The translations under genes were made by a program, and so were the position numbers. 64,000 nucleotides of DNA, taken from NCBI RefSeq assembly GCF_018982965.1, contig NZ_JACBYP010000014.1, positions 1 through 64,000 of the forward strand, given 5' to 3'. Positions 53,267 to 53,433 of the stretch are shown here, piece after piece; the first letter of the stretch is position 1; each line of letters starts with the position of its first letter. The notes beneath the pieces were generated by a model. The model saw nothing but the letters and a program-made list of their open reading frames with translations. It made no database searches and had not been told where the DNA came from. This stretch comes from Streptomyces mayonensis. GTDB lineage: Bacteria; Actinomycetota; Actinomycetes; Streptomycetales; Streptomycetaceae.

Positions 53267-53433
53267 TCCCTACGCCGGCATTACCCGGTAACAGGTTCGG
53301 CGGTCGACGCAGCGGATTCCGTCTGACGACGCTTCGTGGGATACATCACTCGGCTTCGGTGATGTTCCACGTGAAACATCGCTGGGACGGAGGTCAGCGC
53401 CCTCTCAGCCCGGTGCTCCGAGCTCCCGCGTGT
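53267..53433 (-). promoter_or_regulatory. TPP riboswitch (THI element) of thiC with an enlarged variable arm
   Basis: Read on the minus strand, the THI hallmarks occur in order. CTGAGA is at 53408-53403, and the 3' core GAACCTG...CCGGGTAATGCCGGCGTAGGGA-type segment spans 53298-53267. About 105 bases separate the two, more than in a minimal aptamer. The extra sequence folds into three hairpins, one of which is a parS-like palindrome. The ribosome binding site is inside the 3' strand of the aptamer, implying translational control by thiamine pyrophosphate. Confidence 0.88.
53363..53378. other. parS: parS-like site (one mismatch) inside the TPP riboswitch
   Basis: TGTTCCACGTGAAACA differs from the consensus at one base. 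GATG and CATC flanks extend the palindrome into a 20-base hairpin within the riboswitch variable arm. Confidence 0.75.

What the first reader, a model, noticed from the sequence alone, without database searches (positions are those of the whole stretch)
53267..53433. TPP riboswitch carrying a parS-like hairpin in its variable arm
Between the CTGAGA and GAACCTG cores of the thiC riboswitch there are about 105 bases with three hairpins. One is a 20-base palindrome holding a one-mismatch parS. It combines an RNA sensor and a possible partition site in one sequence, which I have not seen described.
Basis: partly seen in the sequence, partly recalled or inferred. Interest (0 to 1): 0.66.

Follow-up and report, generated by a model that had tools for sequence, protein, structure and literature searches.

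The report
Centromere site inside a vitamin riboswitch
In many Streptomyces bacteria the RNA switch that senses vitamin B1 in front of the gene thiC carries, in a spare side arm, a DNA site that closely matches the one used to pull chromosomes apart, and both the DNA site and the RNA arm look protected by evolution, although protein binding there has not been tested.

Summary
The thiC leader (minus strand, 53439-53250) is a TPP riboswitch. Its 106-nt P3 arm carries TGTTCCACGTGAAACA (53363-53378), one mismatch from the Streptomyces parS 14-mer, about 50 kb from dnaA inside the origin-proximal parS array.

Among 144 distinct thiC leaders (all but one Streptomyces), 89 carry a parS with 0 or 1 mismatch inside the aptamer, none has 2-4 as its best match, and 55 have 5 or more. 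No such site occurs in 107,413 flanking positions. In all 43 distinct leaders with the window's span length, copy 1 has exactly one mismatch, from four alleles. A degenerate second copy pairs with it in a long RNA hairpin that shows compensatory changes; separate short hairpins show none. parS-bearing arms fall in three places on the thiC tree. In one species copy 1 has four mismatches and copy 2 only one.

Best reading: an origin-array ParB site sits in the length-tolerant P3 arm, and the same bases are held by a DNA-site and an RNA-hairpin constraint. ParB binding and any cross-talk with thiC are untested. Listings of open-access full-text searches showed no earlier description. Known parts, new combination.

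The parts
53250..53439 (-). TPP riboswitch (THI element) leading thiC
   Evidence: Rfam RF00059, 37.3 bits, full-length model with a long P3 insert; below the gathering score of 54.3
53403..53408 (-). conserved CTGAGA core
   Evidence: sequence; invariant in 44 of 44 aligned rows
53297..53402 (-). 106-nt variable P3 arm between CTGAGA and ACCTG
53363..53378 (.). parS-like 16-mer TGTTCCACGTGAAACA (copy 1); 20-nt near-palindrome 53361-53380
   Evidence: a 0-1 mismatch site lies in the arm of 89 of 144 distinct leaders
53331..53344 (-). degenerate second parS-like copy (GTATCCCACGAAGC, 5 mismatches), the RNA partner of copy 1
53373..53381 (-). outer helix of the long RNA hairpin, 5' side (pairs with 53327-53335)
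   Evidence: columns 28-36 with 74-82, 98.7% of cells paired
53327..53335 (-). outer helix of the long RNA hairpin, 3' side
53359..53368 (-). inner helix of the long RNA hairpin, 5' side (pairs with 53340-53349)
   Evidence: columns 41-50 with 60-69, 96.0% of cells paired; three pairs with changes on both sides
53340..53349 (-). inner helix of the long RNA hairpin, 3' side
53318..53391 (-). arm closed by the P3-base helix 53386-53391 with 53318-53323
   Evidence: columns 18-23 with 86-91, 98.4% of cells paired
51428..53257 (-). thiC (ThiC, 609 aa)
   Evidence: ORF; homologues in 198 of 199 genus genomes
60652..60667 (.). neighbouring imperfect parS (TGTTTCACGTGGAACC), used as a comparison site; between a LysR-type and a NUDIX-like gene (names from reading the translations)
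15282..15297 (.). perfect parS of the origin array
34312..34327 (.). parS of the origin array, perfect in its central 14 bases
42728..42781 (.). two parS sites, perfect in their central 14 bases, 38 bp apart

Best explanation
A ParB-binding site (parS) of the origin-proximal array sits in the length-tolerant P3 arm of the thiC TPP aptamer. As DNA it should nucleate ParB about 50 kb from dnaA, like its neighbours (inferred). As RNA the same bases, with a second degenerate copy, form one long P3 hairpin that leaves the conserved cores intact (hairpin supported by covariation; normal TPP switching inferred). The arm behaves like a threshold trait: its best site is perfect or carries one of a few single mismatches, never 2-4. 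The 14 bp are therefore held both as a protein-binding DNA site and as one arm of an RNA helix. Whether ParB occupancy alters thiC transcription, or transcription disturbs ParB, is open; passive sharing of the sequence is the default.
For: Inside the aptamer. In the array: 18 sites within two mismatches at 15-98 kb of contig C55, parB at 96.2 kb, dnaA at 103.3 kb. Best match in the aptamer over 144 distinct leaders: 0-1 mismatch in 89, 2-4 in none, 5 or more in 55. No 0-1 mismatch site in 107,413 flanking positions of the 147 rows, against 103 in 17,146 bases of spans. Copy 1 has exactly one mismatch in 43 of 43 distinct 142-nt spans; copy 2 has 1-5. parS rows fall in three places on a tree of 86 thiC genes; fewest changes 4, at least 3 forced. 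Mismatches in copy 1 avoid each other: 0 of 54 main-clade rows have two, simulations of independent columns average 9.8-9.9 such rows, and 6 and 9 of 3000 runs give none. With the one exceptional row kept (L284, 4 mismatches in copy 1), 1 of 55 rows against a mean of 11.4, 30 of 3000 runs as low; with a duplicate row also dropped, 11 of 3000. In that same genome (leader L204) copy 2 is the 1-mismatch site. RNA: long hairpin with 5 pairs and 25 cells changed on both sides, reached by 1 and 0 of 500 shuffles; slid versions give 2-3 pairs and 2-4 cells. RNAalifold gives nearly the same fold. Within the parS copies, changes on paired columns are 8 (5' arm) against 17 (3' arm), while the whole helix is balanced, 26 against 27. 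The genome's ParB has R, T, K, G at the four specificity positions; R and G are the parS type, and the RTKG version of Caulobacter ParB bound several site variants (PMC7383237 passages).
Against: No binding or expression data. The ACATG and ACGGG alleles change central bases and may bind weakly. By my reading, 21 of 23 array-like sites in this genome are perfect 14-mers, so the thiC site is atypical. Changes in copy 1 fall mostly in its 3' half (21 of 22 in 54 rows; 23 of 26 with L284), which a purely palindromic DNA constraint does not predict. The 8 against 17 arm contrast is only suggestive; dropping pair 41:67 (1 against 12) was post hoc. Central unpaired columns of the two copies vary about equally. 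The covariation shuffles do not allow for relatedness (tool note). The neighbour site also keeps a one-mismatch allele, so imperfection alone is no sign of a special role. 55 of 144 leaders lack the site, so it is dispensable.
Confidence: 0.7

Rival explanations
1. RNA-only: the arm descends from a parS palindrome but is now kept only as an RNA hairpin; ParB no longer uses it.
For: Long-hairpin covariation. The 3'-half bias of changes (21 of 22, or 23 of 26 with L284) is strand-specific. Copy 1 varies mainly at RNA loop or wobble positions.
Against: Drift under hairpin pairing alone should leave arms whose best site has 2-4 mismatches; there are none among 144 distinct leaders. Mismatches avoid each other. 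The near-perfect site is in copy 2 in L204. Leaders without parS keep P3 hairpins of quite different sequence. parS-bearing arms sit in three places on the tree, though repeated gain is not proven.
Confidence: 0.17
2. DNA-only: the site is an ordinary array parS, and the RNA hairpin is merely what any palindrome would form.
For: Array context and sequence threshold. A one-mismatch allele is also kept at the neighbour site in 41 of 43 parS-clade rows.
Against: Compensatory changes between copy 1 and copy 2, which ParB binding at copy 1 does not need, and none within the two self-hairpins. Strand-biased changes.
Confidence: 0.25
3. Active coupling: ParB bound inside the transcribed leader acts as a roadblock, or TPP-controlled transcription evicts ParB, so that the one-mismatch alleles are tuned to weak binding.
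For: The site is inside the leader. Perfect copies are rare here (7 of 89) but usual elsewhere in this genome (my reading). ParB represses genes next to parS3 and parS4 in P. aeruginosa and affects comCDE in S. pneumoniae (PMC7022226 passages).
Against: No expression data. A plateau model, in which a few single mismatches are equally good, gives mostly imperfect sites without tuning. The same review passages say that loss of ParB left genes next to parS unchanged in B. subtilis, and that the eight genes changed in S. pneumoniae were not near its parS sites.
Confidence: 0.15
4. Chance resemblance of a GC-rich hairpin to parS.
For: The P3 arm is a hairpin in the leaders folded, with or without parS.
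Against: Window enrichment 6 against 0.83 expected; 89 of 144 distinct leaders with at most one mismatch, none in the flanks.
Confidence: 0.01

Closest known systems
TPP (THI-element) riboswitch, Rfam RF00059
   Same: Full-length model match, both cores, position in front of thiC; columns 101-142 average 0.02 changes in 28 rows.
   Different: The P3 arm is extended by one or two parS-like palindromes. The score is below the gathering cut-off, but so are thiC riboswitches of relatives G004, G005 and G006 without parS (43.1, 47.1, 45.7 bits), so the insert is not the only reason.
Chromosomal ParABS parS sites of Streptomyces (origin array)
   Same: Sequence, near-origin location, retention in many species. 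PMC4852455 gives 23 sites in the centre of the S. coelicolor chromosome and 16 in S. venezuelae (passages).
   Different: Lies inside a structured regulatory RNA and is usually one mismatch from perfect, unlike most sites of this genome.
parS sites that affect nearby genes (P. aeruginosa parS3/parS4; S. pneumoniae parS near comCDE)
   Same: A partition site close to a gene it might influence (PMC7022226 passages).
   Different: Those are described as intergenic, or 5 kbp from the operon, not as parts of an RNA sensor.

Membership tests
TPP riboswitch (RF00059) | Match to the covariance model with both conserved cores | tested here: met
   Full model 1-105, E 3.5e-05, 37.3 bits, though below the curated gathering score of 54.3; cores invariant in 44 aligned rows
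TPP riboswitch (RF00059) | Upstream of a thiamin gene | tested here: met
   thiC starts at 53257, within 10 bases of the end of the thi box (53267); ThiC homologues in 198 of 199 genomes
TPP riboswitch (RF00059) | Binds TPP and switches expression | not testable with these tools
   needs in-line probing or a reporter
parS (ParABS centromere site) | Palindromic GTTTCACGTGAAAC-type sequence | tested here: met
   one mismatch; fits TGTTYCACGTGRAACA exactly
parS (ParABS centromere site) | Clustered near oriC with parAB | tested here: met
   18 sites within 2 mismatches on contig C55; parB and dnaA on the same contig
parS (ParABS centromere site) | Retained in related species | tested here: met
   89 of 144 distinct leaders; 55 lack it
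parS (ParABS centromere site) | Cognate ParB of parS-binding type in the genome | tested here: met
   R173 and G201 equivalents present, with T179 and K184 (positions from PMC7383237 passages)
parS (ParABS centromere site) | Bound by ParB in vivo or in vitro | not testable with these tools
   no ChIP or EMSA data at hand for this locus

The most novel reading that the evidence does not exclude
The 14 bp are truly dual-coded and the two functions talk to each other: ParB bound at a deliberately sub-optimal parS inside the riboswitch gates thiC transcription (or riboswitch-controlled transcription gates ParB loading), linking thiamin status to origin organisation in Streptomyces.
Probability: 0.15. 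Interest if true: 0.85.

Novelty: new variant of a known kind. Interest (0 to 1): 0.64.

Why it matters
It would be a chromosome-segregation site embedded in a ligand-sensing RNA and kept under two kinds of selection at once. It makes two questions testable at one small locus: how much mismatch a functional parS tolerates in vivo (four single-mismatch alleles are kept at this locus, and no arm has a best site with two to four), and how ParB loading coexists with transcription through the site. The riboswitch also scores below the Rfam gathering cut-off, so routine annotation can miss it.

Tried and rejected
Chance resemblance: rejected by window shuffles and by the leader counts. Separate self-hairpins as the conserved RNA fold: neither self-hairpin has a two-sided change; the only one counted lies in the shared P3-base helix. 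Imperfection as a peculiarity of the riboswitch: rejected, since the ACATG, ACGGG and GTGG alleles also occur elsewhere in genus genomes (57, 117 and 175 of 199 genomes have the exact 14-mer somewhere, thiC included), and the neighbour at 60652 keeps a one-mismatch allele in 41 of 43 parS-clade rows. Sites outside Streptomyces: none within 1 mismatch in 14 non-Streptomyces loci checked whole; two Streptomyces rows were checked in the same call, also without.

Literature, listings only unless stated: parS with ParB, Streptomyces, thiC or riboswitch (15 of 1,233 papers listed, 15 of 49, 15 of 20, 2 of 2); none of the listed titles describes this. Most subscription papers are not held, and supplements with published parS coordinates could not be opened (cap of zero). 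I read passages, not whole texts, of PMC8743542, PMC12207404, PMC12511625, PMC4852455, PMC5157956, PMC7383237 and PMC7022226. I could not learn whether S. coelicolor or S. venezuelae carries the site.

Limits of the sample: 120 of the 198 genus genomes with ThiC were used, taken from the listed best-scoring rows, which leans towards relatives of the window; 26 of the 80 named loci were used. Leaders were found with a regular expression for the two cores. In one search, L064, L059 and L284 were left out (57 parS rows, 54 used); L284 has 4 mismatches in copy 1 and was put back, which weakens the result from 6-9 to 30 of 3000 runs (11 when a duplicate row is dropped). Simulation rates were tuned coarsely. 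The tree counts do not tell three gains from one early gain with several losses.

Full report
What is there. The thiC leader lies on the minus strand. Rfam places a complete TPP riboswitch at 53439-53250 with a long P3 insert (37.3 bits, gathering cut-off 54.3). The arm between CTGAGA and ACCTG is 106 nt. It holds TGTTCCACGTGAAACA at 53363-53378, which on the RNA strand reads GTTTCACGTGGAAC in its central 14 bases. The window holds six sites within three mismatches of parS where 0.83 are expected.

Where it lies. On the same contig parB is at 96.2 kb and dnaA at 103.3 kb, about 50 kb from the riboswitch, and 18 parS sites within two mismatches lie between 15 and 98 kb. By my reading (28 matches, 5 of them set aside as not parS-like), 21 of 23 array-like sites are perfect 14-mers; the thiC site and 60652 are the exceptions. 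This fits the published origin cluster of Streptomyces (PMC8743542 and PMC4852455, passages).

How widespread. I fetched 120 leaders from unnamed genus genomes and used 26 of the 80 named loci; with the window this gives 147 rows, 144 distinct. Best match to parS inside the aptamer: 0 mismatches in 7, 1 in 82, 2-4 in none, 5 or more in 55. No site with 0-1 mismatch occurs in 107,413 flanking positions of the 147 rows. The site starts 31-32 nt after the start of CTGAGA, except in L059 (37) and L204 (52). Spans with parS are 108-143 nt and spans without are 63-111 nt.

History. On a tree of 86 thiC genes, parS rows fall in three places: the large clade that holds the window, L064 and L059, the last two with perfect sites. 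The fewest changes are 4, at least 3 forced by well-supported branches. Three gains are the simplest account; an early gain with several losses is not excluded. In 54 rows of the main clade the allele changes 14 times, yet no row has two mismatches in copy 1; independent columns at matched rates average 9.8-9.9 such rows, and 6 and 9 of 3000 runs give none. Those 54 rows leave out L284, whose copy 1 has four mismatches; with it back, 1 of 55 rows against a mean of 11.4, 30 of 3000 runs as low, or 11 of 3000 when a duplicate row is dropped. In that same genome copy 2 is the one-mismatch site (L204), so the arm still holds one near-perfect parS. In the 43 distinct spans of 142 nt, copy 1 has exactly one mismatch in all (19, 14, 8 and 2 rows of four alleles), while copy 2 has one to five.

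RNA. Alignment A1 holds 44 rows (43 distinct) without gaps. The long hairpin, copy 1 pairing with copy 2 around an internal loop at the parS centre, has 97.6% of cells paired, and 5 pairs and 25 cells changed on both sides, against shuffled means of 1.8 and 9.3 and slid versions with 2-3 pairs and 2-4 cells. The shuffles do not allow for relatedness. RNAalifold finds nearly the same fold. The two short self-hairpins pair almost as well, because parS is a palindrome, but neither has a two-sided change. The window RNA folds 3.4 standard deviations below its shuffles.

Two constraints. Across the long helix the two arms change equally (26 and 27 parsimony changes in 28 rows), but within the parS copies the 5' arm changes 8 times and the 3' arm 17 times. 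Leaving out the pair at the variable parS base gives 1 against 12, a choice made after seeing the data. Against a purely DNA view, 21 of 22 changes in copy 1 (23 of 26 with L284) fall in its 3' half, where the common ones sit in the RNA loop or keep a wobble pair. The central unpaired columns of the two copies vary about equally. I read the whole as DNA-site selection plus RNA pairing; the DNA part rests on sequence patterns only.

ParB. The genome's ParB has R, T, K and G at the positions equivalent to 173, 179, 184 and 201 of Caulobacter ParB. Arginine and glycine there are the parS type, and the RTKG version of Caulobacter ParB was reported to bind several site variants (PMC7383237, passages). 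This makes binding to the natural one-mismatch alleles plausible; it is not shown.

Controls that temper the claim. Imperfect parS alleles are not peculiar to the riboswitch. The site about 7 kb away (window 60652) keeps the same one-mismatch allele in 41 of 43 parS-clade rows; the other two, L250 and L253, have two mismatches (orthology judged by distance). The ACGGG allele occurs in 117 of 199 genomes; in rows I inspected it often lies about 30 kb beyond thiC. So single mismatches are tolerated elsewhere in the array. The thiC site stands out because perfect copies are rare (7 of 89) and because it is also an RNA arm.

Novelty. The listings of four full-text searches (three of them capped at 15 papers) showed no description of this arrangement, within an open-access library only. 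Both parts are known; the combination appears new.

Noticed in passing
window 59524-59650 (-): Rfam match to the Streptomyces small RNA Scr3920 (140.9 bits), the only gathering-level RNA in the window.
   Followed up: no
window 42728-42781: Two parS sites, perfect in their central 14 bases, only 38 bp apart.
   Followed up: no
genome G010: One Streptomyces species has 25 copies (13 + 12) of the imperfect GTTTCACGTGGAAC, where the other rows of the table show 0-8; its parS array may have shifted allele.
   Followed up: no
genus genomes: Single-mismatch parS alleles seem fixed at particular loci: ACGGG often about 30 kb downstream of thiC, ACATG often about 47 kb upstream, by inspection of some listed rows, not counted.
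   Followed up: partly
window 53250-53439; G004, G005 and G006 thiC leaders: thiC TPP riboswitches of several Streptomyces score below the Rfam gathering cut-off, with and without parS (37.3; 43.1, 47.1, 45.7 bits), and the window's own one was not among the two matches listed for G000.
   Followed up: partly
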